Shown here: positions 6,850-28,018 of the stretch, one piece after another | How the letters are laid out: every line of letters starts with the position of its first letter | Numbering within the stretch: the first letter of the stretch is position 1 | NCBI RefSeq assembly: GCF_001307195.1 | Contig: NZ_CP012808.1 | Location: 1,674,001-1,738,000 of the forward strand | From: Acinetobacter equi | GTDB taxonomy: Bacteria > Pseudomonadota > Gammaproteobacteria > Pseudomonadales > Moraxellaceae | Length of the DNA stretch: 64,000 bases | Direction: 5' to 3' | Translations under genes and position numbers: made by a program | The notes under the pieces: generated by a model | The model's input: the letters and a program-made list of their open reading frames with translations, nothing else | Database searches by the model: none | Told to the model about the DNA's origin: nothing

Positions 6850-6890
6850 CTTTATATATTTTTCTTCATTTATAAAAGAGATGATATAAA

Positions 6891-6916
6891 CCCCCGAATG
6901 TTTCGGGGGGGTATTT
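6891..6916. terminator. Terminator between convergent genes
   Basis: An 8-bp perfect stem (CCCCCGAA / TTCGGGGG) with a 3-base loop, followed on the plus strand by extra G and TATTTTT. It lies between the convergent DUF817 and cupin genes. Confidence 0.8.
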
Positions 6917-6918
6917 TT

Positions 6919-7275: not shown

Positions 7276-7348
7276 TATGTTTAATCCTCATGATCAATAG
7301 AAGTTGAGAAATGAAATTAAAATGATTGGCTTAAAAATTGAGTTAAAA

Positions 7349-7378
7349 AAAAGCCTCAATATTTATTGAGGCTTTTCA
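7349..7378 (-). terminator. Terminator after folE
   Basis: A 12-bp perfect stem (AAAAGCCTCAAT / ATTGAGGCTTTT) around an ATTT loop. The minus strand continues into a T-rich run. It lies directly after the folE stop. Confidence 0.85.
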
Positions 7379-7382
7379 AATA

Positions 7383-7937
7383 TTAGTAACTTTCTGGTAC
7401 GGCACTTAAAAATTCACGACGTTCTTCTTTATTGGTTTTGAAATCACCAATGAAAGAGACTGTACGTGTCGTGGATTCTTGTTTTCCTACACCGCGCATC
7501 ATCATACACATATGTGCTGAATCAATGACAACGGCAACGCCACGAGCACCTGTAACTTCAGCAACAGCTTCAGCAATTTGCTGTGTCAAATTTTCTTGAA
7601 TTTGCAAACGACGTGCAAACATTTCTGTAATACGAGCAAATTTAGATAAGCCTAAAACATTGCCTTCTGGTAGATATGCAATATGAACACGACCATAAAA
7701 TGGCAATAAATGATGTTCGCATAAAGAGTAGAATTCAATATTTTTAACTAAAACCATTTCACGGTTGTCAGAAGGGAAAACCGCATTGTTGGTGACTTCT
7801 GCTAATGACTGGTTATATCCTGAAGTCAAATATGAAAAAGCTTTAGCAGCACGCATAGGCGTATCTTTAAGACCAGGACGATTCAGATCTTCGCCAACGG
7901 CAGTTAGGATATTTGCGTAGGATTGCTGCATAGACAT
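7383..7937 (-). CDS. folE: GTP cyclohydrolase I
   Basis: A 184-aa enzyme converting GTP to 7,8-dihydroneopterin triphosphate, the first step of folate and pterin synthesis. Zinc and active-site motifs are readable: [20 protein letters not shown] (zinc Cys and His of CEHH) and the second zinc Cys in [21 protein letters not shown] and [10 protein letters not shown] complete the core. Met1 or Met3 could be the start. It is transcribed on its own, with about 90 bp separating it from the divergently placed upstream region. Confidence 0.96.
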
Positions 7938-8027
7938 AAGACGTGTTCACTTACACTTGAGAGATTGAACAAGGACGGCATTGTAGCAGAAAACTACCAT
8001 AATGCCTCCTTTTGAATAAAATTTGGA

Positions 8028-8720
8028 TTACTGTTTAAATTTTGGATTTTTTTCAGCGCGTTTCAAAAGAACGAGAACAGCTCCAGTACCGCCTTGTTTT
8101 TCAGGAGCACTGACAAATGCTAAAACATCGCGATGTTGACGTAACCAGCTATTCACATAAGTTTTTAAAATTGCTTCAGGGCCTTTGCCATGTACAATTT
8201 TAATCACATTTTGGTTTTCATCTTTGGCAATTTGAATGATTTGTAAAACGGCAGTACGAGCATCTTCAATGGTACAACCATGTAAATCTACTGCTTCGAA
8301 CCAGCGTAAATTACCCGCTTTTAAATCTTCAAAGACTTTATGCTGTAAAGTTGCAATACGATAACTTAATGCAACTTGGCTTTCAACAGGGTTTAGCATG
8401 GCATGTGTATCTGATAACTCAGCATGATCTGCTTCCATAGGACCCATTGCAGCAGCACGTTTTGCTAAAGTTTGAGCATCGGGTTTTTTCTTGATAGATT
8501 TTTCTAATTTCGCAGTATTGCCATGCGCCATTTTTTGCACACCTTGCATTTGTTTGCGAAATAAATCGAAATCATCTTCTTCTTTAGGTGCATCGACAGC
8601 TTGAGTATTGACTTCAGTCTGTTTTGCAATTGCAGAAGAATGAGGATGAGTGATTTGCTTTTTAAAGGCTTTCAATAAATTGAATTGATCTTTAGAAAGA
8701 GAAGAATCATGCTTACTCAT
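8028..8720 (-). CDS. Smr domain protein (SmrA/SmrB type)
   Basis: A 230-aa soluble protein. The N-terminal ~130 residues are charged and probably mostly unstructured. The C-terminal ~90 residues are the Smr domain, with DLHGCTIEDAR and IVHGKGPEAILK followed by GGTGAVLVLLKR, matching the family's LDLHG and HGKG motifs. Stand-alone Smr proteins are endonucleases; SmrB cleaves mRNA at collided ribosomes. Which Smr paralogue this is cannot be decided from the sequence alone. It is separated by 90 bp from folE, which follows in the same direction. Confidence 0.85.
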   Translation of the reverse strand: MSKHDSSLSKDQFNLLKAFKKQITHPHSSAIAKQTEVNTQAVDAPKEEDDFDLFRKQMQGVQKMAHGNTAKLEKSIKKKPDAQTLAKRAAAMGPMEADHAELSDTHAMLNPVESQVALSYRIATLQHKVFEDLKAGNLRWFEAVDLHGCTIEDARTAVLQIIQIAKDENQNVIKIVHGKGPEAILKTYVNSWLRQHRDVLAFVSAPEKQGGTGAVLVLLKRAEKNPKFKQ

Positions 8721-8953
8721 AAGTTAAAGGAACATCGAGCTCAAAGAATTTGTGAGTAATTATAGTCTGAAATGCAAATGATTTGAAATGAATTGAATTC
8801 ACAGAGTTTTGAAATTATTTTCAAATTAAATTTTTAATACTTAAAACATTAAAAAATAGATTTAAAGTCATTTTTATGAGATTTTTATCTTTAAAATAGT
8901 GCCAATTATTAATTTTATTCAAAATATATTTAAGTATATACAGGGGAAAGGAT
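8721..8953. other. AT-rich divergent intergenic region
   Basis: This 233-bp, very A/T-rich stretch separates the divergent smr gene and the 184-aa hypothetical gene. It must contain both promoters. I see no RNA gene or clear palindrome in it. Confidence 0.5.
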
Positions 8954-9508
8954 GTGCTTACACAGTCCGATTTAATTTTTAATCAGGAATTAGCAGCTTG
9001 GGTTCAGGCAATTGGATCTGTTTTTGCAATTTTTGTTGCAATTAGTATTCCTTTATATCTTAATTATTTACAAAGAAAGAATATGCAACAAGCAATGGAA
9101 ATACAAAAACAAAAATATTTTGTGATTTTATTTCCTAGTTTGTATCGTATTCGACGTTATAGTTTTGATTTTTTAAATCACATAGAAAATCATGAAAATA
9201 ATATTGAAAATATAATGCATACCTTAGACAGTTTATATTTAGATTTAATTCCAGTATTTTCTAAAGAATTGCATATTTTTGTACATAGTCAGATTTATGA
9301 TGAAGATTTAAATCAACTTGCATTTGAGTTTTTCTTTTGTGAGGAAGTTTTACATCAACATTTAAATCAGCCTATGGATCAAAAAAAGAAATATCATCAA
9401 GATTTAATTGTGCAGCATACGCAAAAAGCATATGCACTTTGTGAAAAAATTATTAAGAAAAATGAAAAAAATTATTTGGATGTTGAAATTGATCAAAGCA
9501 AAATTTAA
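8954..9508 (+). CDS. Hypothetical protein with one N-terminal membrane segment, 184 aa
   Basis: The start is GTG at 8954, preceded by an AGGGGAAAGGA ribosome site. An ATG two bases earlier is in another frame and closes after 7 codons. Residues about 15-37 (WVQAIGSVFAIFVAISIPLYL) form a single transmembrane helix. The remaining 145 residues are cytoplasmic by charge, rich in His, Asn and Lys, and helical. The arrangement resembles small one-TM proteins sometimes linked to phage or stress functions, but I cannot name a family. The gene is even more A/T-rich than its neighbours and stands alone, ending at a strong terminator. Confidence 0.7.
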   Translation: MLTQSDLIFNQELAAWVQAIGSVFAIFVAISIPLYLNYLQRKNMQQAMEIQKQKYFVILFPSLYRIRRYSFDFLNHIENHENNIENIMHTLDSLYLDLIPVFSKELHIFVHSQIYDEDLNQLAFEFFFCEEVLHQHLNQPMDQKKKYHQDLIVQHTQKAYALCEKIIKKNEKNYLDVEIDQSKI

Positions 9509-12479: not shown

Positions 12480-14687
12480 ATGCAACTTTCAAAAACATTA
12501 AGTCAATTGACTGCGGTATTAAAACAAGAAAATCGCGTATTGAGTTTGTCTTTTCCAAATTCGGATGTTCCATGTGCATTTAATATGGTGGTAAATCATA
12601 TTGATGCTCAAGAAAAATTCAACCAAGATTTTGAATTTAAACTAGAAATAATTTCTGATTTACCCGATTTACCACTTGATGATGCTATTGGGAAAATGGC
12701 AAGTGTTGCATGTAAACGTCATGATGGTTCTTTGCGTTATTTTAATGGGTTTATTTTTAGTTTTAGGCTAATTCGTAATGATGGAAGCTTTAGTACATAT
12801 GAAATGATACTCAAGCCTTGGTTAGCTTTTCTAAAATATAAAGAGAATTGTAAGATTTTTCAGAATATTAATATGAAAGATCGTACTCAAGAAATTTTGA
12901 GTGAACTATTTTATAAACCTACAAATTGGATGATTCGTGGAGAAGATCCAGAGGAAACTTTTTCAGTTCAATACAATGAATCTGATTATAACTATTTGCA
13001 CAGAATGTTAGAGCGTAGAGGTTGGATCTATTGGTATGAGCATACCGAAGTAGATCATACCCTATGTATTGCTGATCAAAGCTTAGATACTCAACCTATT
13101 TTCAGTCCTGGGCAAGCATTGATTTGGCGGGGGCAAAATCCACATAATAATTTAGTGGGTATTTTAGGGTATCAGCAAGCATCTAAAATAGGGTTTACTA
13201 AATTTGCTTCAGCCTCTTTTGACTTTAAAAGTCCAATAGCCATTCAAACTGATGTTAAAGCTAAAAATACACCAGAACAAAAAGTTGATTTAGAGCGTTT
13301 TAATTATGCTGGTACTTACGGTTTTAAAGATGAAGATATTGGTCGGAATCAGTTAGATCAGAAAAGATTAGCTCAAGAGTCTGCCGCAGATTACAATAAA
13401 ATGATTTGTAATAATGCCTATGCTGAAGTAGGTAAATGGTTCAAGTTAACTGAATTTGAAGCAAATAATAGTGGTGAGCAAGAATTTCTTATTGTTGGTA
13501 TGCACCATAAAGCAGGCAATAACTATTTGCAAAATAAAAATCGTATGGCGTCTTATGAGGCTGAACTTTTAAGCATTATGCGAGAAACACCTTGGAAGCC
13601 AGAGCTATATTTAAATAGTTTAGATACACGTATTTATGGTATGCAAACAGCGCTTGTTGTAGGGCCTCCAGACGAGGAAATTTATACCGATAAATATGGA
13701 CGTATTAAAGTACAGTTCCATTGGGATAGGTATGGTAAACAAGATGATCTTTCATCTGCATGGGTTCGTGTTGCGAGTGCTTGGGCAGGATCTAATTTTG
13801 GGATGGTGAGTATTCCTCGAATTGGGCAAGAAGTGATTGTTCAGTTCTTAGAGGGGAATCCTGATCGTCCATTGGTAACAGGAAGCGTTTATAACGAAGA
13901 TAATTTACCTCCTTGGGATTTACCTGATAATGCTACGCAATCAGGTATTTTAAGTCGTTCGAGTAAAGGGGCAACTCCTGATAATGCCAATGCGATTCGC
14001 TTTGAAGATAAAAAAGGCGAAGAAGAAGTTTGGATTCATGCAGAAAAAGACCAAAGAATAGAAGTAGAAAATAATGAATCACATTCAGTTGGTGTAGATC
14101 GTTCTAAAACTGTGGGTAGTAATGAAACTGTCAGTATTGGCGTAGATCGGACAGAAACAGTAGGTAAAAATGAAACGATTAATATTGGTGTAGATCGAAC
14201 AGAGACTGTTGGTAATAACGAAATAATTAATATTGGTGTAAATAGAACAGAAACTGTGGGGAATAATGAAACCATAACCATTCAGCAAAATAGAACAAAA
14301 ACAGTTGTTGCGAATGAAAAAGTGACGGTACAGCAAAACCAAGTCGTTTCTGTTGGTTTAAATAAAATGGAAACCGTATCTATTGCAAAAGCGTTAAATG
14401 TAGGAGCAGGTTATGCCGTCACTGTAGGTGCAGGACATGCTTTAACCGTTGTTGGAGCTATGAATACAGCAGTAGGTTTAGCGCAGTTTGAACAAGTGGG
14501 ATTAAATAAAAGTATTTATGTTGGAAAAAGCTTCAATATTGATGTGGCAGATAGTTTTGAAGTTCGAGTAGGAAGTTCTAGTTTTCAAATGAAGTCAGAT
14601 GGAACAATTGTTTTATCTGGTGTGAAAATTCGTATTGAAGCTGACAGCTTAGTACAGATTGACGGCAAAGACGTCGAAATTAACTAA
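12480..14687 (+). CDS. vgrG: T6SS spike protein VgrG
   Basis: A 735-aa protein forming the trimeric spike at the tip of the type VI secretion tube. Residues about 20-380 are the gp27-like part. Residues about 385-475 are the gp5-like OB fold, with the conserved PPDEEIYTDKYGRIKVQFHWDR and SAWVRVASAWAG followed by IPRIGQEVIVQFLEG. Residues about 530-735 are a repetitive beta-helix needle containing about four to five 16-residue repeats of the type GVDRTETVGNNETINI. No extra C-terminal effector domain is attached. The start is ATG 12480, with only a weak ribosome site. It is followed 17 bp later by the DUF2169 gene, then the RHS effector, forming one cargo operon with no structural T6SS genes nearby (an orphan vgrG island). 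Confidence 0.95.
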   Translation: MQLSKTLSQLTAVLKQENRVLSLSFPNSDVPCAFNMVVNHIDAQEKFNQDFEFKLEIISDLPDLPLDDAIGKMASVACKRHDGSLRYFNGFIFSFRLIRNDGSFSTYEMILKPWLAFLKYKENCKIFQNINMKDRTQEILSELFYKPTNWMIRGEDPEETFSVQYNESDYNYLHRMLERRGWIYWYEHTEVDHTLCIADQSLDTQPIFSPGQALIWRGQNPHNNLVGILGYQQASKIGFTKFASASFDFKSPIAIQTDVKAKNTPEQKVDLERFNYAGTYGFKDEDIGRNQLDQKRLAQESAADYNKMICNNAYAEVGKWFKLTEFEANNSGEQEFLIVGMHHKAGNNYLQNKNRMASYEAELLSIMRETPWKPELYLNSLDTRIYGMQTALVVGPPDEEIYTDKYGRIKVQFHWDRYGKQDDLSSAWVRVASAWAGSNFGMVSIPRIGQEVIVQFLEGNPDRPLVTGSVYNEDNLPPWDLPDNATQSGILSRSSKGATPDNANAIRFEDKKGEEEVWIHAEKDQRIEVENNESHSVGVDRSKTVGSNETVSIGVDRTETVGKNETINIGVDRTETVGNNEIINIGVNRTETVGNNETITIQQNRTKTVVANEKVTVQQNQVVSVGLNKMETVSIAKALNVGAGYAVTVGAGHALTVVGAMNTAVGLAQFEQVGLNKSIYVGKSFNIDVADSFEVRVGSSSFQMKSDGTIVLSGVKIRIEADSLVQIDGKDVEIN
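14089..14330 (+). repeat. 48-bp tandem coding repeats in vgrG needle
   Basis: Four to five imperfect 48-bp units, each encoding a 16-residue motif around GVDRTETVGNNET. They are coding repeats that build the triangular beta-helix needle and could change in number by slippage. Confidence 0.75.
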
Positions 14688-14704: not shown

Positions 14705-16075
14705 ATGGAACTTATCAATAAAACTCCATTTCCAGCTTTGATGTATTCAGCAGCCGATGCACATCGTGATGAACATCGTATTGTTGTAATGAAAGTCAGT
14801 TATAAAATTATTCGTAAAGCTCAAGATGAGTGGGGACTAGAACTGATACAAGATGGTTCAATACCATTATGTTTAGCCGATGAATTCTGGGGAGAGGTAG
14901 GACAAAGTAGTGTCAAAATTGAAAGTGATTTAGCACCCTATAAGCCAAAGTGTGATGTGATTGTAAATGGTTCTGCTCATAGTCCAAATGGCAAAGAAAT
15001 GGAAGCAATTGCAGTTCGCTTAAAGCTAAGTGTGCCAGAAAAAAAAGAGCAATTAAAAGAGCCACAGGCACCTCAAGCACTTAATCCTAATATGCCTTTA
15101 ACACAAACACAAATGCAGCAATGGAAAAAAGAACAAGAACATTATCAGGCTGCATTAAAAGCTCAGAAGCCACCAAGCTATCAGGTTCAATTAGAAAAAA
15201 CGCTAAGTGTTCTTGGCGAATCAGTATTTAAACCTAACGTTATGATGCCAGGTTGGAAAAGAAGTTCTATAACTGTCTTTAAACAGCAACCAATTCGTTG
15301 GGAATATGCATTTGGTGGTCATCATTTCTTAAAGTTAAATGAACAAGACAGTGACGCATTTTATAGCAATATGTGTTACAGCAATCCTCTTGGTATGGGA
15401 TGGGTGGCACAAGATTATTTTGAACAATGTGAAAAGCTGAATGCTCGGAAAAAACAGCAAGTTTGTAGTCATTATAAAACGATTCATGCACCACAAATTG
15501 AATATCATTTACAGCGTCAGCCTAAGCCAGCAATTGTCAAACAAGCTCAAATTAAAACTGAAGTGACGGCTAAAGATTTAGCAAAACTTGCACAAAAATA
15601 TCCTTATAAACCTGCAGGATTTGGTTTTGTTGGGCGTTCATGGGTACCACGAATTGCTTATGCAGGGACTTATGATCAGAAATGGCTAGATGAACAGCAT
15701 CCTTATCCACCTTTAGATATGAATTATGCCTATTGGAATGGTGCGCCTGAAGATCAGCAAATTGATTTTTTTTATCCACGTTCACGTTTAGAACTATGGA
15801 ATTTAACAGCGCCTGAACATGCCAAAAATGGTTATTTGAAAGTAGATTTTTTAGGGCATCGTCCTTTTATTGTGATGCATTTTCAAGAAGGTGGAGCCGT
15901 ACCATTTCCAATGATTACGGAAACGCTACTCATTGATACTGATGCTATGACTATTAGCTTAACGCATAAGGCATGGATTCGTTCAGATACAGCACCACTG
16001 GCATATGTAGAAGCACATTTTAGTGATCAAGCAGAAGGTGAGTTGTTCAAATTTGAACATACTCTAACTGAATAG
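14705..16075 (+). CDS. DUF2169 domain protein, T6SS effector adaptor/chaperone
   Basis: A 456-aa soluble protein whose N-terminus (MELINKTPFPALMYSAAD, then EHRIVVMKVSYKI) is characteristic of DUF2169. A Gln/Lys-rich linker lies around residues 110-160. The C-terminal half contains PAGFGFVGRSWVPR and YWNGAPEDQQ followed by FYPRSRLELWNL. DUF2169 genes are repeatedly found between vgrG and genes for PAAR-like (DUF4150) effectors and are thought to help load them onto VgrG; this position fits exactly. A GAGGAG ribosome site lies just past the vgrG stop. The loading role is inferred from family and context. Confidence 0.85.
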   Translation: MELINKTPFPALMYSAADAHRDEHRIVVMKVSYKIIRKAQDEWGLELIQDGSIPLCLADEFWGEVGQSSVKIESDLAPYKPKCDVIVNGSAHSPNGKEMEAIAVRLKLSVPEKKEQLKEPQAPQALNPNMPLTQTQMQQWKKEQEHYQAALKAQKPPSYQVQLEKTLSVLGESVFKPNVMMPGWKRSSITVFKQQPIRWEYAFGGHHFLKLNEQDSDAFYSNMCYSNPLGMGWVAQDYFEQCEKLNARKKQQVCSHYKTIHAPQIEYHLQRQPKPAIVKQAQIKTEVTAKDLAKLAQKYPYKPAGFGFVGRSWVPRIAYAGTYDQKWLDEQHPYPPLDMNYAYWNGAPEDQQIDFFYPRSRLELWNLTAPEHAKNGYLKVDFLGHRPFIVMHFQEGGAVPFPMITETLLIDTDAMTISLTHKAWIRSDTAPLAYVEAHFSDQAEGELFKFEHTLTE

Positions 16076-16118: not shown

Positions 16119-19100
16119 ATGGCAGATAATTTAATGTTACGCAAAGAATCGGGTTGGATGGTCGTTTGTACCATGCCTGATGTGTGTAAAACACCGCCGT
16201 GTATTCCTGTTCCTTATCCTGTTGTTGCTTTTCTTAATGATTCTGAAAAAACACAAACGAATGTTAAAGCCAATAACCATCCTTTTGTTTTACATGATAA
16301 GTCTTATGTGTCACCGACATGGGGTGATCAACTTGGAATATTAAAAGGCATAAAAAGTCAGACAGTTGGAGCAAAATGTTTTCCAATTGATAAAAGTGCT
16401 TCATTTAAAGTTAATGGTAAATGGACTGTTCGTGTAGATGATGCCTTTTGGATGAATGGACAGGGAAATTCAGGTAATACTCGCGGTCGTGTCGTAAAGA
16501 TGCCTCCATTGAGCGAAATGATTGATAGCGCTTTAGATGGTTTACAAGTTGCATTAGATATTGCTGGTTTAATTCCCGGAATTGGTGAAATTGCCGATGG
16601 TATAAACTGTGTTATATGTTTAGCACGTGGCGACTATGAAGGTGCAGCTTTATCTGCTGCTGCAATGATTCCATTTGCAGGCTCAGCTGCAACAGCAACA
16701 AAATTAGGTAAAAAAGTCACCAAAGCGGTGAGTGCAGCAACCAATGCTGCGACTAAAGCCATTAAAAAAACAGCTAAAAAGCATTTGGGTAAAGTTGGGG
16801 CTAGATTTAAAGGTTCAGGCAAAAAATGTAAATCGGGTAAGTGCCAACCTAAAGTAGGTAAGCCAGTAAATCCTTTATATGGTTGTAAGATTTTAACTGG
16901 AGATCAAGATACTGACTTTAGTTTAAATTCAGCGTTACCATTTACATGGCAACGTAGTTATGCAAGTGACAGTCTCATCGGTACAGCGGAGTATCCTATT
17001 TCTTGGTATGGGCAAGGTTGGGACAATCCTTATGGCATGCAAATTAAAGTTTTTCCTGCGCATCAAAAAATTAAATTATTACTACCTTTAGGTGATGAAA
17101 TTGAGTTGCCTTATTTAGAGCCTGAAGATGCTTTTTATCATTTAGGAAAAGATTTAACTTTAATTCGTGAAGCAGTTGCTGAAGGGCAAGAAAGTAAAGA
17201 CTTTAAATTTTGTATAGCAATTGGTACAGAACAAGCAGCTAGCGTATTTTATGAATTTCATCATCAAGTTAATCATGCTAATACTAAGCCTGAATATTTA
17301 GTACTTTGCACAGGATTAGAAGATCTATATAGCAATCGTATTAGCTTAGAATATTTATATACAGATGAAATTTTAAAGCATTATCCAAGCCATATTGTAG
17401 ATAGTATTCAACGTGTCATGAGTCTAGAGTTTATTGAAATTCAGGGACAGGTTCGTTTAAAGCAAATACAATATTTACAAGGTTTAAATCCTGTTGACCC
17501 TCTTAGTGTCACGAAAGAACACTTATATGATTCTTTGCCTGATCGTTTATTCACCGCTCAGCAAAATGCCAATATACATTTACTAGATTTACACGATTAT
17601 TTAAAAGCAAAAACTTTAGTGAGCTATGCCTATTCAGATCAGGCTGATTTAATTCATGTGTATATAGATGATAGTTCTGTTACTGCAAAAGAAGCACACG
17701 AATATAAATTACGTTTAAGCCGTAAATTTGAGTGGAATAATCACATCATGACAGCACATCATGAAGTGGGTGGCATCAGCAGTTATTATGAATATGATCG
17801 CTATGATCCAAGTGGCAAAGTTATACGTCATTGGATGAATACGGGTGAAGAATTCTTATTTGAATATCATATGGGAATGACTCATGTTGTATTCGCACCA
17901 AAAACAACATTAGAAAAACGTGAAACTTATTATTTTGATAAGTATAAATTCTTAACAGCCTATGTGAATGCAATGGGTGAAAAAGAAACGTATCATTATA
18001 ATGATAAGCAACAACTCATTGAAAAAAAGGATGCCGATGGAGGTATCACACAATATCAATATAGCGGTTCGGAATTAACAAAAATTCAAAGTCTAATTCG
18101 CTATGATGAAACATCTAAATTACCTGTTTGGCGAGAAATATGCCTAAATTGGAAAAATGGACGTTTAACGCAAGTTACAGATCCATTGGGTCATAGTGAA
18201 ACCACAGCTTATGATTTTGCAGGACAACCACTTAGCATTAGTAATGCTTTAGGGCAACAAACCCAAATCAAATACAGCCCAGTTGGTATGGCATATCAAG
18301 TGACCGATGCCCAAGGTGGGCATAAGCGTATGCTGTGGGATATGTATGGCAATCTAAAAAACTATCAAGATTGTAGCGGTAAACAAACTCATTATGCCTA
18401 TGATGCATATGGACGCGTGATTGAAGTTAAAGATGCAATGGGGCAAATTACTCATTTAAAATACCACGCCCATCAGCAACAACCATGTGAAATTACTTAT
18501 CCAGATCAAAGCCAAGAATATTTCAAATATGATGCTTTAGAGCGTTTAGTTGAATATCGAGATGCCTTAGGTCGTGCCACAAGCTATGAATACAGTGCAG
18601 ATGATTTGCCGATACAACGAAAAGACAGTGCCAATGGTGTAGTGCATTATCAATATGATGCATTGCGTCGCTTTGTTGGTTTAATCAATGAAAATGGGCA
18701 AACATGGCAAATAGAATATGATGTGAATGATCAGGTGATTGCGGAAACCACTTTTGATGGTATTCGTACAGAATATGAATACAGCTCTGCGGGTCATTTA
18801 GTACAGCATCGTCAACTCACTGAACAACAAAAAATTCGCTATAGCACTTATTTTAAACGTGATTTATTGGGTCAATTACTTGAACAATATATTATTGATC
18901 ATCAAGATTTAACAGAGAAAAAACGTACCCGATATGCCTATGATTTGGCAGGTCAATTGCTTGAAGCCCGTAATGCCGATAGCCATGTATCTTTAAGTTA
19001 TGATGCCATTGGACAATTAACGCAAGAACAATTAGTTGCCCATTGGTTTAATGAACATACACAACAACATAGTCAGCGCAGCCATTGTTTAACTCATCGT

Positions 19101-21200
19101 TATGATGCGTTGGGAAATCGTATTGAAACTACGTTACCTGATGGTCGTAAGTTAAAAACCATGTACTATGGATCGGGGCATGCTTGGCACTATGCTTTGG
19201 AAGATCAAAGTGGTGTTCATGAAATTAGTCAGCTACAGCGGGATGATCTACATCAGGAGATACAACGTAGTCAGGGCGATTTAAATAGTCAGTTTAAGCT
19301 TGATAGCATGGGGCGTTTAGTTGAACAACAGGTATGTTGGCAAGGACAAAGCTCATACAAACGCTTAGAACGAGAATATCGTTATGATCAGGCAGGGCAA
19401 TTACAAGAGATTTTAGACAAGCGTTATCATGATCCTTTTCATCATAATAAAAGTCATGTATTGCATGGTGGTGAAGCAAGAGTTTGGCATAAACGACAAA
19501 GTTATCAATATGATGTTTTGTCACGTTTAACAGGCAGTGAACTTAGTTCACAAGGTCAAAACGATAATTATATTCAAATACGAGAACAATTTGCTTTTGA
19601 CCCTGCTAGTAATATTTTACCGATAGCATTCGCTGAAAAGAGCAAAGAAAAATTACAAGATAATCGGGTCAAATATTTAGAACAAGACCATCAAAGCGTA
19701 CATTATGCTTATGATGATTTGGGGCGTGTAATTCAGAAGCGAATATATATTAAAGATCAGCATGCTTTTGGGCATATTCGACAAAATAACTTATCGCAGC
19801 ATACATTGCCAAACACCGCTATATTGCAACAATTTAGCCAACGTCAGATTGACTTAGAGTGGGATGAGCAAAGCCAATTAAAAGCATCAACCTCGACCAA
19901 ACCCGATGGACGTGGTGGGCAAGAAATTATAAAAACCCAATATTATTATGATCCTTTTGGGCGACGAATTGCCAAGCAAAGTCAGATTTATCATAAGTCG
20001 ATTGTTCAGCAACAGTTGAAGAAAAAGTTGGCGTCTTATTCTGTACCTTCTGCATCAAGTACAAGCTCATCGAATCAATTAGGTTCATCAATGAATCTGA
20101 GTTTAGGAGGCACAGAATCATCACCAAATCGTATTCCAAAACATACACTATCACCACAGAAAGTAAAACGAGAACAAACTCAATTTATTTCTAAACATGC
20201 CGTGTGGAATGTATGGGATGGTAATCGTATTTTACAGGATTATAACGGACGACATGTTTTTACCACGGTATATGAAGCTGATAGTTTTGTGCCTTTGGCA
20301 CGTGTGGTTTGGCTAGACGAACAGTTAAGTTGTGCAGCTAATGATGCACCAAATGCTGAACAGCTGGAGACACTTAATAATTTACAACAATTGACTTTAA
20401 GCAATTTAGAAGGCTTTGAAAGTTTGGATGCCGATGCATTTAAACTTCCTCATGCACAAAATGATGAAGCACACGAACACAGTTCACACCAAATTTACTG
20501 GTATCAAAATGACCATTTAGGTACGCCTCGTGAATTAACAGAACAAGGTGGTGAGATTGCATGGGAAGCGGTGTATCAAGCATGGGGCAATACGGTTACG
20601 GTGGAATGGGAAGAAAGGGCTCAGCCGAACCCAATTCAACTGAATACTTTAGAACAAATGTATTTATTACAACCACATCGTTTTCAGGGACAGATTTATG
20701 ATGTAGAAACAGGTTTACATTATAACCGCTTCCGTTATTATGACCCTGATTGTGGGCGTTTTATAAGTCATGATCCAATTGGATTATTAGGTGGAGATAA
20801 TCACTTTCAGTATGCGCCGAATCCTGTGGAGTGGGTGGATCCGCTTGGTCTTAATGCTGTAGCAAATATAGGGAGACTAGGCGGAAAAAGTGTGTCTAAT
20901 ATTATTAAAATAATTACCAGTAAGGGATTTGTTCGATCTAATCCTGTGACTAATCTATCAAATTTACACTATTCACATCCAGATGGCTCAAGAATATGGA
21001 TTCATCAACATGGTGACCAAAGAACAGGAGATTTTAAAACAGGAAATAATGCTCATGTTCATAAATATGATCCTTGTGGTAACAAATTAGATGATAATGG
21101 GTTACTATCCAATAATCCAAACGAATACCATATTGGAATTAAAAACCCTAAAGATTTACCTATAGTAAGAAATCGACCACACGGAGCTGGCAATAGATGA
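16119..21200 (+). CDS. PAAR-like/RHS repeat T6SS effector with C-terminal toxin domain
   Basis: A 1693-aa polymorphic toxin. Residues 1 to about 130 form a PAAR-like (DUF4150 type) tip, with MVVCTMPDVCKTPPCIPVPYP at the start. Residues about 135-240 hold two hydrophobic helices and a Lys-rich stretch, possibly for translocation. From about residue 250 (VNPLYGCKILTGDQDTDF) come the RHS-associated N-region and many YD repeats (for example YDAYGRV). The core ends at RYYDPDCGRFISHDPIGL, NPVEWVDPLGL being the conserved junction where the toxin is normally cut off. The last ~115 residues are the variable toxin, with SHPDGSRIWIHQHGD, NNAHVHKYDPCGN and NEYHIGI; the His/Asp pattern suggests a nuclease but I cannot assign a family. 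An AGGAACGAAG ribosome site precedes ATG 16119. The toxin end overlaps the next gene by 4 bp (ATGA), as toxin-immunity pairs often do. Confidence 0.92.
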   Translation: MADNLMLRKESGWMVVCTMPDVCKTPPCIPVPYPVVAFLNDSEKTQTNVKANNHPFVLHDKSYVSPTWGDQLGILKGIKSQTVGAKCFPIDKSASFKVNGKWTVRVDDAFWMNGQGNSGNTRGRVVKMPPLSEMIDSALDGLQVALDIAGLIPGIGEIADGINCVICLARGDYEGAALSAAAMIPFAGSAATATKLGKKVTKAVSAATNAATKAIKKTAKKHLGKVGARFKGSGKKCKSGKCQPKVGKPVNPLYGCKILTGDQDTDFSLNSALPFTWQRSYASDSLIGTAEYPISWYGQGWDNPYGMQIKVFPAHQKIKLLLPLGDEIELPYLEPEDAFYHLGKDLTLIREAVAEGQESKDFKFCIAIGTEQAASVFYEFHHQVNHANTKPEYLVLCTGLEDLYSNRISLEYLYTDEILKHYPSHIVDSIQRVMSLEFIEIQGQVRLKQIQYLQGLNPVDPLSVTKEHLYDSLPDRLFTAQQNANIHLLDLHDYLKAKTLVSYAYSDQADLIHVYIDDSSVTAKEAHEYKLRLSRKFEWNNHIMTAHHEVGGISSYYEYDRYDPSGKVIRHWMNTGEEFLFEYHMGMTHVVFAPKTTLEKRETYYFDKYKFLTAYVNAMGEKETYHYNDKQQLIEKKDADGGITQYQYSGSELTKIQSLIRYDETSKLPVWREICLNWKNGRLTQVTDPLGHSETTAYDFAGQPLSISNALGQQTQIKYSPVGMAYQVTDAQGGHKRMLWDMYGNLKNYQDCSGKQTHYAYDAYGRVIEVKDAMGQITHLKYHAHQQQPCEITYPDQSQEYFKYDALERLVEYRDALGRATSYEYSADDLPIQRKDSANGVVHYQYDALRRFVGLINENGQTWQIEYDVNDQVIAETTFDGIRTEYEYSSAGHLVQHRQLTEQQKIRYSTYFKRDLLGQLLEQYIIDHQDLTEKKRTRYAYDLAGQLLEARNADSHVSLSYDAIGQLTQEQLVAHWFNEHTQQHSQRSHCLTHRYDALGNRIETTLPDGRKLKTMYYGSGHAWHYALEDQSGVHEISQLQRDDLHQEIQRSQGDLNSQFKLDSMGRLVEQQVCWQGQSSYKRLEREYRYDQAGQLQEILDKRYHDPFHHNKSHVLHGGEARVWHKRQSYQYDVLSRLTGSELSSQGQNDNYIQIREQFAFDPASNILPIAFAEKSKEKLQDNRVKYLEQDHQSVHYAYDDLGRVIQKRIYIKDQHAFGHIRQNNLSQHTLPNTAILQQFSQRQIDLEWDEQSQLKASTSTKPDGRGGQEIIKTQYYYDPFGRRIAKQSQIYHKSIVQQQLKKKLASYSVPSASSTSSSNQLGSSMNLSLGGTESSPNRIPKHTLSPQKVKREQTQFISKHAVWNVWDGNRILQDYNGRHVFTTVYEADSFVPLARVVWLDEQLSCAANDAPNAEQLETLNNLQQLTLSNLEGFESLDADAFKLPHAQNDEAHEHSSHQIYWYQNDHLGTPRELTEQGGEIAWEAVYQAWGNTVTVEWEERAQPNPIQLNTLEQMYLLQPHRFQGQIYDVETGLHYNRFRYYDPDCGRFISHDPIGLLGGDNHFQYAPNPVEWVDPLGLNAVANIGRLGGKSVSNIIKIITSKGFVRSNPVTNLSNLHYSHPDGSRIWIHQHGDQRTGDFKTGNNAHVHKYDPCGNKLDDNGLLSNNPNEYHIGIKNPKDLPIVRNRPHGAGNR
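19898..20842 (+). repeat. 945-bp direct repeat, copy 1 (RHS core end)
   Basis: This block reappears at 21541-22485, offset 1643 bp. I found no mismatch by reading; the translated parts are identical. It ends at the GATCC of the WVDP junction codons, exactly where the toxins diverge. Confidence 0.92.
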
Positions 21201-21520
21201 GTTGTGAATATATATTAAAATTTCATAATACAGATGATATATTTATTTTTAAATCTAGACTTGAAAGGCTAGATAGTTATGTAATTGAAAGTGATACAAT
21301 TAGTGTAAAACTTAAATCACTTTTATCAAACCATAATTGGGATCATGATGCTATTTTCTTCTTTGATAAAACAGCTCTAAATAGTGTTGATCTTCAACTA
21401 AGTAATGATAATACATATATATATAATGATGTTAAATCTTGTCTATTAGGTATTATTTTTAATATAAAAGATGAAGATGGTATTTGCTATTCATTAGAAG
21501 ATATTTTTAATATAAAGTGA
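21197..21520 (+). CDS. Candidate immunity protein to RHS toxin 1
   Basis: A 107-aa, acidic, soluble protein with no signal peptide. Its ATG overlaps the TGA of the RHS effector (21197-21200), so the two are translationally coupled. Position, size, low G+C and lack of resemblance to anything I recognise all fit an immunity protein that neutralises the toxin domain just upstream in the cytoplasm. Function is inferred from context only. Confidence 0.7.
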   Translation: MSCEYILKFHNTDDIFIFKSRLERLDSYVIESDTISVKLKSLLSNHNWDHDAIFFFDKTALNSVDLQLSNDNTYIYNDVKSCLLGIIFNIKDEDGICYSLEDIFNIK

Positions 21521-21540
21521 ATATAGCCAATTCAAAGCAT

Positions 21541-22564
21541 CAAACCCGATGGACGTGGTGGGCAAGAAATTATAAAAACCCAATATTATTATGATCCTTT
21601 TGGGCGACGAATTGCCAAGCAAAGTCAGATTTATCATAAGTCGATTGTTCAGCAACAGTTGAAGAAAAAGTTGGCGTCTTATTCTGTACCTTCTGCATCA
21701 AGTACAAGCTCATCGAATCAATTAGGTTCATCAATGAATCTGAGTTTAGGAGGCACAGAATCATCACCAAATCGTATTCCAAAACATACACTATCACCAC
21801 AGAAAGTAAAACGAGAACAAACTCAATTTATTTCTAAACATGCCGTGTGGAATGTATGGGATGGTAATCGTATTTTACAGGATTATAACGGACGACATGT
21901 TTTTACCACGGTATATGAAGCTGATAGTTTTGTGCCTTTGGCACGTGTGGTTTGGCTAGACGAACAGTTAAGTTGTGCAGCTAATGATGCACCAAATGCT
22001 GAACAGCTGGAGACACTTAATAATTTACAACAATTGACTTTAAGCAATTTAGAAGGCTTTGAAAGTTTGGATGCCGATGCATTTAAACTTCCTCATGCAC
22101 AAAATGATGAAGCACACGAACACAGTTCACACCAAATTTACTGGTATCAAAATGACCATTTAGGTACGCCTCGTGAATTAACAGAACAAGGTGGTGAGAT
22201 TGCATGGGAAGCGGTGTATCAAGCATGGGGCAATACGGTTACGGTGGAATGGGAAGAAAGGGCTCAGCCGAACCCAATTCAACTGAATACTTTAGAACAA
22301 ATGTATTTATTACAACCACATCGTTTTCAGGGACAGATTTATGATGTAGAAACAGGTTTACATTATAACCGCTTCCGTTATTATGACCCTGATTGTGGGC
22401 GTTTTATAAGTCATGATCCAATTGGATTATTAGGTGGAGATAATCACTTTCAGTATGCGCCGAATCCTGTGGAGTGGGTGGATCCTTGGGGGTTGAGCTG
22501 TTGTAGTAGTTTACAGATGTTGATTGGACTAATCATGGGAATAAACATGTTCCAGCAAATCTAA
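21541..22564 (+). pseudogene. Orphan RHS tip (duplicate of RHS core end) with alternate C-terminus
   Basis: Bases 21541-22485 repeat 19898-20842. Weaker homology extends back to about 21526, where a 10-bp gap relative to copy 1 is seen. There is no RHS N-terminus and no evident start (TTG 21659 is merely the first possible codon), so this is a non-expressed cassette of the orphan rhs-tip kind. After WVDP it reads WGLSCCSSLQ and then runs out of the toxin frame to a stop at 22564. The true toxin frame starts on a shifted frame at about 22510. One missing base near 22511-22516 would reconnect them. Confidence 0.88.
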
Positions 22565-22845
22565 AATGGGATAAAATTGTGGAGTCAACAAAAAGAGGGC
22601 CAGCTAAATATTTACCAGGTACAAATATTCAAGCATTAGAAAGAAATATTTGGGCAAAGGGTATCGAAATAGCAACACCTAGGGGGAAAAATACGAAATG
22701 GAAAATTCAAGATTTAGGTGAAATAATTGGTGCTAGTGAAGGTAAAGAAACGAAATATATGAGGGTAGAGTGTTCTCAAGGAGTTATTCATGGGCATCCT
22801 ATTTCCAAAGCTGAATTTACAAAATTAATGAAGAGAGTATTATAA
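22510..22845 (+). pseudogene. Second RHS C-terminal toxin domain, out of frame with its RHS core
   Basis: The frame is open from 22510 to TAA 22845. It contains DVDWTNHGNKHVP, then a Lys-rich stretch, then GEIIGASEGKETKYMRV, ending with GVIHGHPISKAEFTKLMKRVL. This is a complete-looking ~105-residue toxin domain different from toxin 1. Conserved His residues at both ends (HGNKH, IHGHP) suggest an RNase- or nuclease-like fold, but no family is assigned. GTG 22579 is an internal possible start giving 88 aa. It is separated from the RHS core frame by two in-frame TAG codons at 22504-22509. As it stands it cannot be made as an RHS fusion. Confidence 0.72.
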
Positions 22846-22846
22846 G

Positions 22847-23170
22847 GTGAGTTTAGAGAAAAAAATTGAATTAAAGGATGGGATTATTTCATTCGATAAT
22901 TTAACTTGGTTAAAAGATAATAATCAAGTAAAAATGAATGTTGATTTTTTAACGGAAGATTTACTACAAATCAATTTTTTTTGTGATCGGTTTATAATTG
23001 ATGTAGGGTGGTATCCTTCTACTTCAAAAAAAGGCTGTTTTACTATCATGCTTATAAAAAATCAAGATTGGACTAAACCACTTTTTATAAGTAACACAAG
23101 GAATTTATTTGATGTTTATAAGTATATAAATATATGTATTAAAATAATATATAAAAAAAATCACTTATAA
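22847..23170 (+). CDS. Candidate immunity protein to RHS toxin 2
   Basis: A 107-aa soluble protein starting with GTG at 22847, one base after the toxin-2 stop; the AAGG just upstream is a poor ribosome site because it overlaps the stop. It is rich in Asn, Lys and Ile and more A/T-rich than the RHS core. It has no signal peptide and no family that I recognise. Position right after the toxin makes it the candidate immunity protein. Unlike its toxin it has no visible defect, which fits selection to keep immunity, or expression from its own promoter. Confidence 0.62.
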   Translation: MSLEKKIELKDGIISFDNLTWLKDNNQVKMNVDFLTEDLLQINFFCDRFIIDVGWYPSTSKKGCFTIMLIKNQDWTKPLFISNTRNLFDVYKYINICIKIIYKKNHL

Positions 23171-23285
23171 GGTGGTGTTGTTGTAAATAGCCTAGAATAT
23201 ATAAGTGTTTAGACTCATTAGGAAAATTTAAGAGACTAGTTTGAAAAATTTAGAAAAAATATATATAGTTGATAAAAATATGGTG

Positions 23286-24065
23286 GTGTTTCAAAAAGTA
23301 TGCTGAAGAAAAACAGATTGGATTTTGATAAAATAGAGAAATGCAAATAACTCTAGCAATCAAATGTCCAACCTGCCTCAGTGACAGTATAAAGAAAAAT
23401 GGTATCAAAGTAGATGGGAAACAAAACTATCAGTGCAAAGACTGTAAACGTCAGTTTATTGGTGATCATGCACTGAGCTATCTAGGATGTAAGTCAGGTA
23501 TTACTCGTAAAATATTACAGTTGATGGTCAGAGGCAGTGGTATACGAGATATTGCTGAAGTTGAGCGCATCAGTATCGGTAAAGTTTTACGGACTTTAAC
23601 TGAATCAACCTATAAAATTTAGCCTCAGCAAAGTCATTATGAATCTCTTGAGGTGGATGAGTTCTGGACGTTTGTTAGAAATAAAAAGAATAAACAATGG
23701 CTTATTTACGCCTATCATCGAGAAACAGGTGAAATTGTTGCTTATGTTTGGGGTAAACGAGATTTAGCAACAGTCCAGCAATTGAAGATAAAGCTGAAAC
23801 AATTAGGTATTCACTACACTCGAATTGCAAGTGATCATTGGGACAGCTTCATCAGTGCTTTTAAAAATTGTAAGCAAAGTATTGGTAAATTTTTTATTGT
23901 AGGTATTGAAGGCAATAATTGCAAAATAAGACATAGAATGAGTCGTAGCTTCAGAAGAAGCTGTAATTTTTCGAAAAAGCTTGAAAACCATTTTAAAGCT
24001 TTCGATTTAGCCTTCTTTTACATCAATAATGGCTTTATTTAATGTCAGCATACTTTTTGAAACAC
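23286..24065 (+). mobile_element. IS1-family insertion sequence
   Basis: The element is about 780 bp, bounded by perfect 21-bp inverted repeats (23286-23306 and 24045-24065, beginning GTGTTTCAAAAAGTATGCTG). It encodes an IS1-type transposase. Flanking bases show no matching 8-9 bp target duplication (left ends ATATGGTG, right begins AACCTTGG). It sits between the second immunity gene and a decayed RHS fragment. Confidence 0.9.
23341..24042 (+). pseudogene. IS1-family transposase with in-frame stop
   Basis: The N-terminal part has the IS1 InsA-type zinc finger (CPTCLSDSIKKNG, then YQCKDCKRQF), followed by a helix-turn-helix segment. The C-terminal part from about 23650 has the InsB-type DDE domain (VDEFWTFV, then YAYHRETGEIVAYVWG, IASDHWDSF and the FSKKLENH end). 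Both parts are in the same frame, separated only by TAG at 23620-23622 where CAG (Gln) would be expected. This is therefore a single-ORF IS1 subgroup with one nonsense mutation, not the classic insA/insB programmed frameshift arrangement. The element is probably unable to move by itself. Confidence 0.85.
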
Positions 24066-24107
24066 AACCTTGGTTTAAAATAATAAGGTTATTGGTTTTT
24101 GTCCTTT

Positions 24108-24280
24108 TATTGAACAATTGAAGTGTTGGCAAGGACAAGCCAACATAAATGTTTAGAACGAGAATATCGTTATGATCAGGCAGGGCAATTACAAGAGATT
24201 TCAGACAAGCGTTATCATCATAGACTTCATCATAATAAAAATCACGTACTGTATGGTGGTGAAATAAAAGTTTGGCATAG
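24108..24280 (+). pseudogene. Decayed third RHS fragment
   Basis: About 170 bp closely resembles 19320-19494 of the full RHS gene. It shares TGTTGGCAAGGACAA and a long stretch encoding REYRYDQAGQLQEI, with scattered substitutions (clearly diverged, unlike the 945-bp repeat). No open frame connects to anything. It is a relic of an older RHS copy or orphan tip cut by rearrangement, and the IS1-family element lies at its left side. Confidence 0.85.
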
Positions 24281-24282
24281 TT

Positions 24283-24633
24283 GATCAAACAATTTATTGC
24301 ACATTCCATGAATTGAATAAAAGTAAATTTTTAGAACTATTAGATAAGAAATGTGCAAGAAACATGATATTGATTTTATCAAAATTCATATTTGAATTGA
24401 AAATGTCTAATTATTGTAGTGCAAATATCTTTTATATGATGAAAGCAAAGGATTGTGAAATACACTTTAGTTTATGAGAAATATTTTTGATATTTATATA
24501 TTTTTATTATAAATTAATGTTTTGCATTTAATTTTTATCAAATCTATTGAAATCATATTTTTGTTTTAAAAAGAGAGTTACATCAAATTTTTTTATGAAT
24601 ATTCCTAGATAAATATAATCTAAAAATTCTATT
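24283..24633. other. AT-rich region without genes
   Basis: About 350 bp between the RHS relic and the glnA regulatory region. No ORF, RNA gene or repeat was recognised; it is very A/T-rich and may be remains of the RHS island edge. Confidence 0.4.
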
Positions 24634-24650
24634 TGCACTAAAATGGTGCT
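24634..24650 (+). promoter_or_regulatory. NtrC-type enhancer site upstream of glnA
   Basis: The 17-mer TGCACTAAAATGGTGCT closely matches the NtrC consensus dyad TGCAC-N7-GTGCA, missing only the outermost base. It lies about 150 bp upstream of the sigma-54 element, a usual enhancer distance. Confidence 0.7.
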
Positions 24651-24685
24651 CCTGTAAAATCTTTTTTAATTATTATGTTTAAGAA

Positions 24686-24702
24686 TGAGTGAATGTGGTG
24701 CA
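24686..24702 (+). promoter_or_regulatory. Possible second NtrC site (one good half)
   Basis: The right half TGGTGCA (24696-24702) is perfect while the left half TGAGTGA is poor. It is about 100 bp upstream of the sigma-54 element and could be a weaker cooperative site. Confidence 0.4.
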
Positions 24703-24798
24703 TTTCTTGGCATAGACAGTATAATAGCAAAAATGTAAAAGCTATATTGCGTGTTTTCTGATAAGGAATTCAGTATTTTAACTTAGCTTTGACATAGT

Positions 24799-24814
24799 TG
24801 GTATGGTATTTGCT
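24799..24814 (+). promoter_or_regulatory. Sigma-54 promoter of glnA
   Basis: TGGTATGGTATTTGCT matches the -24/-12 consensus TGGCACG-N4-TTGCW, with GG and GC exactly 12 bases apart. Transcription would begin near 24825, about 50 bp before the glnA ATG. Confidence 0.8.
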
Positions 24815-24874
24815 TGATATCAGTCAACTACTAACACGCACTCTGTGAGTGCAACAAAAAAACATCGGAGCAAA

Positions 24875-26290
24875 ATGAGCATGGCGAACAAGGTCCTTCA
24901 ACTCATCCAAGAAAGTGGCGCAAAATGGGTCGATTTTCGCTTTACTGATACTAAGGGTAAAGAGCAGCATGTAACTTACCCTGCAGATACGATCGACGAA
25001 GATACATTTGAAGACGGCAAAATGTTTGACGGCTCTTCAATTGCAGGTTGGAAAGGTATTGAAGCTTCTGACATGATCTTACGTCCAGATGCTGAAACAG
25101 GTTTCATCGACCCGTTCTTTGCTGAGCCAACTGTAGTTGTGACTTGTGACGTAATTGAGCCATCTACTGGTCAAGGTTACGAACGTGATCCACGCTCTAT
25201 TGCTCGTCGTGCTGAAGAATACCTAAAATCTACAGGTATTGGTGATACTGCATTCTTTGGTCCAGAACCAGAATTCTTCGTTTTTGACGAAGTAAAATGG
25301 GATATCGATATGTCTGGCGCACGCCATACATTAATCGCTGAAGAAGCTGCATGGTCTACAGGTAAAGATTACGAAGCTGGTAACTCAGGTCACCGTCCAC
25401 GTGTAAAAGGTGGTTACTTCCCAGTTCCTCCTGTTGATTCTTCACAAGATATGCGTGCAGATATGTGTGCAAAAATTGAAGACATCATGGGTCCAGGTCG
25501 TGTAGAAGTACATCACCACGAAGTTGCATCTTGCCAATTAGAAATTGGTGTAAGCTTCAACACAATGGTACGTAAAGCAGACGAAGTACAACAGTTTAAA
25601 TATGCTGTTTGGAACGTTGCACATCAATATGCAAAAACAGCAACATTTATGCCTAAACCAATGGTAGGCGATAATGGTTCTGGTATGCATGTTCATATGT
25701 CTATCTCTAAAGATGGTAAGAACTTATTTGCTGGTGATGAATATGCAGGCCTTTCAGAAATGGCATTGTATTTCATTGGCGGTATTATTAAGCATGCTCG
25801 TTCATTAAATGCGTTAACAAACCCTTCTACAAACTCGTATAAGCGTTTGGTTCCACATTTTGAAGCGCCAATTATGCTTGCTTATTCAGCACGTAACCGT
25901 TCTGCATCTATTCGTATTCCTTATGTTTCAAGCCCTAAAGGCAAACGTATTGAAGCACGTTTCCCAGATCCAATGATGAACCCGTACTTAGGTTTTGCTG
26001 CATTGTTAATGGCTGGTCTTGATGGTATTCAAAATAAAATCCATCCAGGCGAAGCTGCTGATAAGAACTTATATGATCTTCCTCCTGAAGAAGAAGCAAA
26101 AATTCCTACAGTTGCGCACAGCTTAGATATGGCTTTAGAAGCATTAGCTGCTGATCACGACTACCTATTAAAAGGTGGCGTATTCACTAAAGAAATGATC
26201 GATGCTTATATTGAACTTAAAACTGAAGATGTACGTCGTTTAAATACAACAACTCACCCAGTTGAGTTTGATATGTACTACAGCTTGTAA
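24875..26290 (+). CDS. glnA: Glutamine synthetase, type I
   Basis: A 471-aa dodecameric enzyme making glutamine from glutamate, ammonia and [15 protein letters not shown] and [14 protein letters not shown] mark the N-terminal domain; [11 protein letters not shown] and [10 protein letters not shown] are metal/ATP and glutamate sites. NLYDLPPEE carries the Tyr normally adenylylated by GlnE. ATG 24875 is chosen over an in-frame GTG at 24845 because a GGAG ribosome site precedes it and it gives the family start. Codons are biased toward C-ending, highly expressed forms. Regulation by nitrogen through NtrC and sigma-54 is indicated by the upstream sites. Confidence 0.97.
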
Positions 26291-26973: not shown

Positions 26974-28018
26974 GGCTTTGTTGCATAAACCTAGCCTAGA
27001 AGGTCTATTTAATCCTATAATTTCAAAATGAATAAACCTGCCCCTAAAACCTATCGTACAACCAATTGGTCATCCTATAACCGAGCTTTAATTAACCGAG
27101 GTAATATTTCCATTTGGTTTGATCCAAAGACTCAGTGGTATGCACAATCACAAGGTAAGCAAGGTCGAAATCAAATCTACTCCGATACAGCGATTCAATG
27201 CTGCTTAATGATCAAGTCACTATTTCGACTCTCTTTACGTATGGTGATGGTGACAGGTTTTGTCCAAAGTCTGATTAAGCTTTGTAGATTAGATTGGACA
27301 GCTCCAGATTACACTACGCTTTGTAGAAGACAAAAGCATATTGATATTGCGATTAGCTATCAAAAAAGTAGTGATGGTCTCCATCTACTCATGGACTCTA
27401 CTGGTTTGAAGTTTCTAGGTGAAGGTGAATGGAAGTGTAAGAAACATGGGGCTGAATATCGTCGCCAATGGCGTAAGCTGCATATTGCTATAGATGCTGA
27501 AACTCTTCAAATACGTGCAGTTCAGCTTACAACGAATAATGTCAGTGATTCGCAAGTGCTCGAAGATTTACTTGCTCAAATTCCCTTGGATGAACAAATT
27601 GATTCTGTTTATACAGATGGTGCTTATGACACAAAGCATTGCCGACAAGTCATTTTAGATCGAGATGCACATGCTGTGATTCCTCCAAGGAAGAATGCAA
27701 AGCCTTGGAAAGATCAGCAAGCGAGGTCTATGGAACGGAACGAGTTATTGAAAACAGTCAAACGGCTGGGAAGGTCACTTTGGAAAAAGTGGTCTGGTTA
27801 TCATCGTCGTAGTTTGGTGGAAACCAAGATACATTGCATCAAATTATTAGGCGATAAATTAACAGCAAGGAGCTTTCCGAGTCAGGTGAATGAGATTCAT
27901 GCACGCGTAGCAGTATTGAATAAACTCACAGAATTAGGTCGCCCGCATACCCAAGTTGTCTCTTAAATTTGGAATACTAGGGATAGTTCTATCTCTCAAA
28001 TCTCTATGCAACAAAGCC
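26974..28018 (+). mobile_element. IS5-family (IS903-like) insertion sequence
   Basis: A 1045-bp element bounded by 14-bp perfect inverted repeats (GGCTTTGTTGCATA at 26974-26987 and its complement at 28005-28018), enclosing one transposase gene. The flanks (TCGCTAAAT left, GTTTTAAAT right) are not a proper 9-bp duplication, consistent with a deletion next to the element. Confidence 0.93.
27028..27966 (+). CDS. IS5-family transposase
   Basis: A 312-aa DDE transposase of the IS903 group. It starts MNKPAPKTYRTTNW and contains an N-terminal helix-turn-helix region (SDTAIQCCLMIKSLF). The catalytic motifs MDSTGLKFLGEGEW, VYTDGAYDT and RSLVETKIHCIK supply the D, D and E in the usual spacing. Length is normal and no stop or frameshift is seen, so the element appears intact and able to transpose. 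Confidence 0.95.
   Translation: MNKPAPKTYRTTNWSSYNRALINRGNISIWFDPKTQWYAQSQGKQGRNQIYSDTAIQCCLMIKSLFRLSLRMVMVTGFVQSLIKLCRLDWTAPDYTTLCRRQKHIDIAISYQKSSDGLHLLMDSTGLKFLGEGEWKCKKHGAEYRRQWRKLHIAIDAETLQIRAVQLTTNNVSDSQVLEDLLAQIPLDEQIDSVYTDGAYDTKHCRQVILDRDAHAVIPPRKNAKPWKDQQARSMERNELLKTVKRLGRSLWKKWSGYHRRSLVETKIHCIKLLGDKLTARSFPSQVNEIHARVAVLNKLTELGRPHTQVVS

What the first reader, a model, noticed from the sequence alone, without database searches (positions are those of the whole stretch)
19898..22485. Apparently perfect 945-bp direct repeat in an RHS toxin locus allows toxin/immunity switching
The RHS core end (19898-20842) is repeated without visible mismatch at 21541-22485, with toxin 1 plus immunity 1 between the copies and toxin 2 plus immunity 2 after the second. 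Orphan rhs tips are an established concept. Recombination between the copies would delete 1643 bp and join the full RHS gene to toxin 2. Identity over 945 bp next to diverged DNA implies very recent duplication or continuing gene conversion.
Basis: partly seen in the sequence, partly recalled or inferred. Interest (0 to 1): 0.85.

Follow-up and report, generated by a model that had tools for sequence, protein, structure and literature searches.

The report
Displaced Rhs toxin tip, perfect repeat
A bacterial toxin-delivery gene carries two exact 945-letter copies of its end piece, most likely because a new toxin was slotted in and pushed the old one downstream; this is a known way such genes change weapons, and here the displaced toxin is out of reading frame, so a simple swap back would not arm it.

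Summary
In detail: 19898-20842 and 21541-22485 agree at 945 of 945 bases, 1643 bp apart, the only two matches in the one-contig genome. The locus is a T6SS cargo cluster (VgrG, DUF2169 protein, PAAR-like Rhs) of Acinetobacter. Tip 1 and a putative immunity gene are attached to Rhs; tip 2 and its putative immunity gene sit behind the second core-end copy. A relative (G045) carries tip 2 (81-83% aa) in frame on its main Rhs, so tip 2 looks like a displaced main tip: C-terminal tip displacement, as described by Jackson et al. 2009.

Of 34 orphan core ends measured in 17 other loci and the window, the window stands out by identity: the next longest exact run is 356 bp.

The core frame of copy 2 stops 26 codons past the core end, while toxin 2 is coded in another frame; a 1643-bp deletion would lose toxin 1 and its putative immunity gene without deploying toxin 2. 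A diverged sliver (19/23) left of copy 2 shows the perfect tract adjoins older, diverged homology. Continuing gene conversion is possible but not shown. New member of a known kind.

The parts
12480..14687 (+). VgrG (735 aa, no DUF2345 match)
   Evidence: Pfam Phage_GPD, Gp5_trimer_C, Phage_base_V
14705..16075 (+). DUF2169 protein, probable adaptor
   Evidence: Pfam PF09937, E = 6e-56
16119..21200 (+). Main rhs gene, 1693 aa, PAAR-like N-terminus, RHS core, tip 1
   Evidence: Pfam Tox-PAAR-like, RHS_repeat, RHS; NCBIfam TIGR03696
19898..20842 (+). Core end, copy 1 of the 945-bp repeat
   Evidence: 945 of 945 identical to copy 2
20843..21200 (+). Tip 1 (toxin domain, unassigned family), in frame with rhs
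   Evidence: Relatives are C-termini of Rhs-type proteins on two plasmids, 47% and 40%
21197..21520 (+). Putative immunity gene 1, overlaps the rhs stop by 4 bp
   Evidence: Position and size; no family match
21518..21540 (+). Diverged sliver of core homology left of copy 2
   Evidence: 19 of 23 against the copy 1 flank; random maximum 14
21541..22485 (+). Core end, copy 2 of the 945-bp repeat (orphan)
   Evidence: core frame open 21527-22561, stop 22562-22564
22486..22845 (+). Tip 2 (displaced toxin domain), out of frame with copy 2
   Evidence: Own frame 22525-22842 matches 8qjc toxin domain, E = 3.7e-25, and the G045 main tip, 83%
22847..23170 (+). Putative immunity gene 2
   Evidence: 64% aa identity to the gene after the same tip in G045
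23282..24069 (+). IS1-like element with 24-bp ends (23 of 24 match)
   Evidence: Pfam InsA and DDE_Tnp_IS1, ends
24106..24279 (+). Older rhs core remnant, 85% to 19316-19491

Best explanation
A T6SS PAAR-like Rhs effector locus after a recent C-terminal tip displacement. Tip 2 with its immunity gene was once the tip of a main gene. DNA carrying tip 1 and its immunity gene recombined at the core end; the main gene gained tip 1, and tip 2 was pushed downstream behind a second copy of the last 945 bp of core. Shown: the exact repeat, the two modules, the frame of each, tip 2 on a main Rhs in a relative, an older rhs remnant further downstream. Inferred: insertion by homologous recombination at the core end plus a second joint in or next to older orphan core sequence, which left the diverged sliver; the toxin and immunity roles themselves. 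As it stands tip 2 is silent as an Rhs fusion: no delivery part and out of frame. Its module may be kept for the immunity gene, or be decaying. The repeat should recombine (RecA type, inferred), but the deletion product would be an Rhs with a short tail that lacks the toxin domain, and without immunity gene 1.
For: Exact repeat and genome context. VgrG, DUF2169, PAAR-like Rhs domains; a VipB sheath gene in the genome. The same toxin 2 and following gene form the main tip of an open 1562-aa frame in G045, after VgrG and DUF2169 homologues. Tip arrays behind a main rhs in 17 other loci. Older remnant at 24106-24279. Sliver left of copy 2. The same kind of locus is described in PMC2935791 and PMC3150448 (passages).
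Against: No same-species strain without tip 1 was available, so the direction of the event is inferred from one relative with about 1 synonymous change per site. The synteny test with G045 covered only the upstream side. The left-versus-right identity test of the insertion model was inconclusive: 12 of 21 other orphans positive, raw p = 0.66, control-adjusted p = 0.04. No biochemical test of toxin or immunity.
Confidence: 0.82

Rival explanations
1. Working toxin switch: recombination between the copies deletes tip 1 and immunity 1 and deploys toxin 2.
For: 945-bp perfect homology exceeds the 522 bp at 95% that recombines in Salmonella (PMC3967940, passages). 26 of the 33 other orphan tips measured stay open 90 codons or more past the core end, so such switches look possible elsewhere.
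Against: Here the core frame stops after 26 codons and toxin 2 is in another frame. The residues before the break align with the G045 tip, so the break is not in the G run beside the core end (reading by eye).
Confidence: 0.08
2. The duplication is old and continuing gene conversion keeps the copies identical.
For: Diverged sliver directly left of the perfect tract. G060 has a 356-bp exact run in a 2053-bp repeat that is 80.8% identical overall.
Against: Of 33 other orphan core ends none comes near 945 bp of identity. G060's run lies at the left end of its repeat, as a one-sided insertion would also give. A recent insertion explains the identity without repeated events.
Confidence: 0.15
3. The displaced module is kept as an immunity reservoir: gene 2 protects against neighbours that still use toxin 2, and the broken tip does not matter.
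For: Gene 2 is an intact ORF; against G045 dN 0.26, dS 1.39. Toxin 2 is in use as a main tip in a relative.
Against: Constraint between species does not show selection since the displacement. Promoter-like sites are not clearly above shuffles. Expression not known.
Confidence: 0.3
4. The tandem order is an assembly artefact of a 945-bp repeat.
For: Reads shorter than 945 bp could not tell the tandem from a one-copy chromosome plus a separate circle with tip 1, immunity 1 and the core end; the sequencing method is not known here.
Against: One complete contig; copy 2 has its own diverged left flank, which misassembly would not invent; the alternative needs a circle at similar copy number.
Confidence: 0.04

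Closest known systems
Rhs C-terminal tip displacement (Jackson et al. 2009, PMC2935791; passages seen)
   Same: Full rhs gene followed by dissociated core fragment plus other tip; core regions identical within a locus; circle model proposed
   Different: Acinetobacter T6SS PAAR-like Rhs instead of Enterobacteriaceae; displaced tip out of frame; diverged sliver at the left edge
Salmonella Typhimurium rhs main/orphan recombination (Koskiniemi et al. 2014, PMC3967940; passages seen)
   Same: Main gene, immunity, orphan tip and immunity, shared core stretch
   Different: There 522 bp at 95% and recombination demonstrated with a working orphan toxin; here 945 bp at 100%, not observed, orphan toxin out of frame
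Acinetobacter PAAR-3 Rhs clusters with DUF2169 and short VgrG (PMC6838775; passages seen)
   Same: Gene order VgrG-DUF2169-PAAR-like Rhs
   Different: The passages seen do not describe the orphan tips
Orphan cdiA-CT/cdiI modules in Acinetobacter (PMC6336857; passages seen)
   Same: Stepwise displacement of toxin/immunity modules; homology-anchored illegitimate recombination proposed
   Different: CDI two-partner system, not T6SS Rhs

Membership tests
T6SS PAAR-like Rhs effector | PAAR-like N-terminus fused to RHS repeats and core domain | tested here: met
   PF13665, PF05593, PF03527, TIGR03696
T6SS PAAR-like Rhs effector | VgrG and DUF2169 genes upstream, T6SS in the genome | tested here: met
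   one VipB match. Other T6SS parts were not searched
T6SS PAAR-like Rhs effector | Antibacterial toxicity of the tip, neutralised by the next gene | not testable with these tools
   No assay; tip 1 has no family match above cut-off
Displaced (orphan) rhs tip | Core fragment without its own start region, with a different tip and small gene, downstream of a main rhs | tested here: met
Displaced (orphan) rhs tip | High identity of core fragment and main core | tested here: met
   945 of 945
Displaced (orphan) rhs tip | Same tip found on a full-length rhs elsewhere | tested here: met
   G045, 83% over 104 residues, open frame 1562 aa; that gene is split from its PAAR-like part by transposase-like ORFs (by eye)
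Recombinational toxin switch (Salmonella type) | Orphan tip in frame with its core fragment, so that a crossover makes a fusion | tested here: not met
   Core frame stops 26 codons past the core end
Recombinational toxin switch (Salmonella type) | Recombinant junction present in the population | not testable with these tools
   No reads and no same-species strains held

The most novel reading that the evidence does not exclude
The perfect repeat is an active exchange point: crossovers continually split the locus into a blunt-Rhs chromosome (no toxin 1, no immunity 1) and a free 1643-bp circle carrying core end, tip 1 and immunity 1. That circle would be the transferable tip cassette that Jackson et al. 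postulated as a hypothetical intermediate.
Probability: 0.08. Interest if true: 0.65.

Novelty: new member of a known kind. Interest (0 to 1): 0.3.

Why it matters
Tip displacement is an accepted way by which Rhs weapons diversify, but in the passages I read its circular intermediate is a hypothesis. Of the 34 orphan core ends measured this is the one most alike its main copy, with a repeat long and perfect enough for deletion and circle junctions to be looked for directly. It also warns that an identical repeat beside a second toxin does not by itself make a working switch: the frame must be checked.

Tried and rejected
Common left boundary of orphan core fragments: the window and G045's third core end seemed to start at nearly the same core position (by eye), but over the 34 orphans the retained core runs from 30 to 701 aa without a clear cluster; dropped.

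Left half more identical than right half, as expected for one-sided illegitimate insertion: 21 other orphans with 200 or more aligned bp, 12 positive, raw p = 0.66, control-adjusted p = 0.04; inconclusive.

Immunity 1 relative: no alignment with the gene after the related tip in Eleftheria terrae. Regulatory RNA: no Rfam match at gathering score in 20000-25000. Promoter-like sites 25 against 20.9 (sd 3.8) in shuffles; terminator-like sites 4 against 1.7 (sd 1.5): not informative. Plasmid collection, near mode: one record, 1% of the query. Structure of tip 1 not obtained. The first dN/dS script used wrong frames for toxin 2 and the core end, redone. A first script to find main genes used too strict a motif, replaced by a profile.

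Full report
Observation. The two stretches are identical over 945 bases (19898-20842 and 21541-22485), 1643 apart. No other direct exact repeat of 60 bp or more exists in the window, and the genome, one 3,054,269-bp contig, has only these two matches. With 0 differences in 945 sites the 95% upper limit of divergence is about 0.3% (own arithmetic).

What it is. The cluster is VgrG (12480-14687), a DUF2169 protein (14705-16075) and a 1693-aa Rhs with a PAAR-like N-terminus (16119-21200). The genome has one VipB (T6SS sheath) match and five VgrG-type matches, one with an internal stop. The genus is Acinetobacter: close loci come from A. stercoris and A. gerneri, and the contig lengths of G028 and G157 equal those of these records. 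The gene order matches the PAAR-3/DUF2169/short-VgrG clusters described for A. gerneri and A. equi (PMC6838775, passages).

The two tips. Tip 1 (20843-21200) is in frame with Rhs. It has no Pfam match above a cut-off and no NCBIfam match, no PDB sequence match better than E = 0.27, and no relative in 174 other genomes of the genus; in 368 others drawn from the class there is one weak match, E = 1e-3. Two relatives are C-termini of Rhs-type proteins on plasmids of Eleftheria terrae (47%) and Tenacibaculum finnmarkense (40%), with several conserved histidines. Tip 2's own frame (22525-22842) matches the toxin domain of the solved Rhs 8qjc, E = 3.7e-25. In the genus it is found in 2 of 174 other genomes: G045 (83% over 104 residues) and, weakly, G031.

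Displacement. In G045 the same toxin and the same following gene are the main tip of an open 1562-aa frame, behind VgrG and DUF2169 homologues. In that genome transposase-like ORFs (by eye) sit between the PAAR-like piece and the rest of Rhs, and synteny was compared on the upstream side only. Toxin 2 there and here: 81% aa identity over 106 codons, dN 0.135, dS 1.04; putative immunity 2: 64% over 105 codons, dN 0.26, dS 1.39. So tip 2 is a conserved tip that stands in the main slot elsewhere, and here it stands behind a second core end. An older remnant of rhs core lies at 24106-24279 (85%) beyond an IS1-like element.

Frame. In copy 2 the Rhs frame goes on for 26 codons past the core end (DPWGL and a short stretch that, by eye, aligns with the G045 tip) and stops at 22562-22564; the toxin is read in another frame. 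Because the copies are identical, this already says what a crossover would give; I did not write out the recombinant. An in-frame relative exists in G045.

Genus survey. A core-end profile (TIGR03696) is found in 74 of 175 genomes. I fetched 31 stretches (16, 15), chosen because the listings showed two or more core ends close together or a strong match, so they are not a random sample. One fragment (L050) was left out later; 30 loci plus the window were scanned. Core ends that did not reach profile position 100, and loci without a main gene open for at least 890 codons before the core end, were dropped; G046, G064, G070, G087 and others fell out in this way. That left 34 orphan core ends: 33 in 17 loci and the window's. 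Longest exact run against the main core: window 945 (942 in that alignment), G060 356, the others 122 or less. Identity of the others is 70-95%, with one orphan without DNA alignment. An earlier comparison of the last 1000 bp (43 pairs in 12 other loci, G070 included) gave a maximum of 135 bp. 26 of 34 tips stay open for 90 codons or more; the window's does not, nor do seven others.

Age and mechanism. Just left of copy 2, after a gap of about 10 bp, 19 of 23 bases match the flank of copy 1, where random tip and immunity DNA reached at most 14. So the perfect tract adjoins older, diverged core homology. The simplest account is that the arriving DNA carried tip 1, immunity 1 and the start of a further orphan core, and joined the resident core at both ends, so that both copies are resident sequence. 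A circle, a double crossover or a one-sided illegitimate joint would each do; I cannot tell them apart. G060's exact run lies at the left end of its repeat, which fits the one-sided model, but the test over 21 other orphans was inconclusive.

Known background. Jackson et al. 2009 (PMC2935791, passages) describe displaced tips, identical core regions within loci and a hypothetical circle. Koskiniemi et al. 2014 (PMC3967940, passages) give evidence of main-orphan recombination in Salmonella. Poole et al. 2011 (PMC3150448, passages) report orphan modules whose relatives are fused to full-length genes elsewhere, and one orphan with an in-frame stop. PMC6336857 (passages) describes the CDI counterpart in Acinetobacter. 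PMC5361080 was seen only in a search listing.

Verdict. Real, neat and ordinary in kind: most likely a fresh tip displacement. The switching claim fails on the reading frame as sequenced. Interest 0.3.

Noticed in passing
window 23282-24069: IS1-like element with 24-bp ends (23 of 24 match); no obvious target duplication by eye.
   Followed up: partly
window 27028-27966: A 312-aa transposase-like ORF (IS5 type by eye, not scanned) near the locus.
   Followed up: no
G000:C1:349953-350978: One of five VgrG-type matches in the genome carries an in-frame TAA.
   Followed up: no
L037 (G045) 3017-9391: Transposase-like ORFs (by eye) sit between the PAAR-like piece and the rest of the main Rhs, so delivery there may be broken.
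   Followed up: no
L041 (G060), main rhs nt 2482-2837 of its ORF: A 356-bp exact run at the left end of a 2053-bp main-orphan repeat that is 80.8% identical overall: a conversion or insertion footprint.
   Followed up: partly
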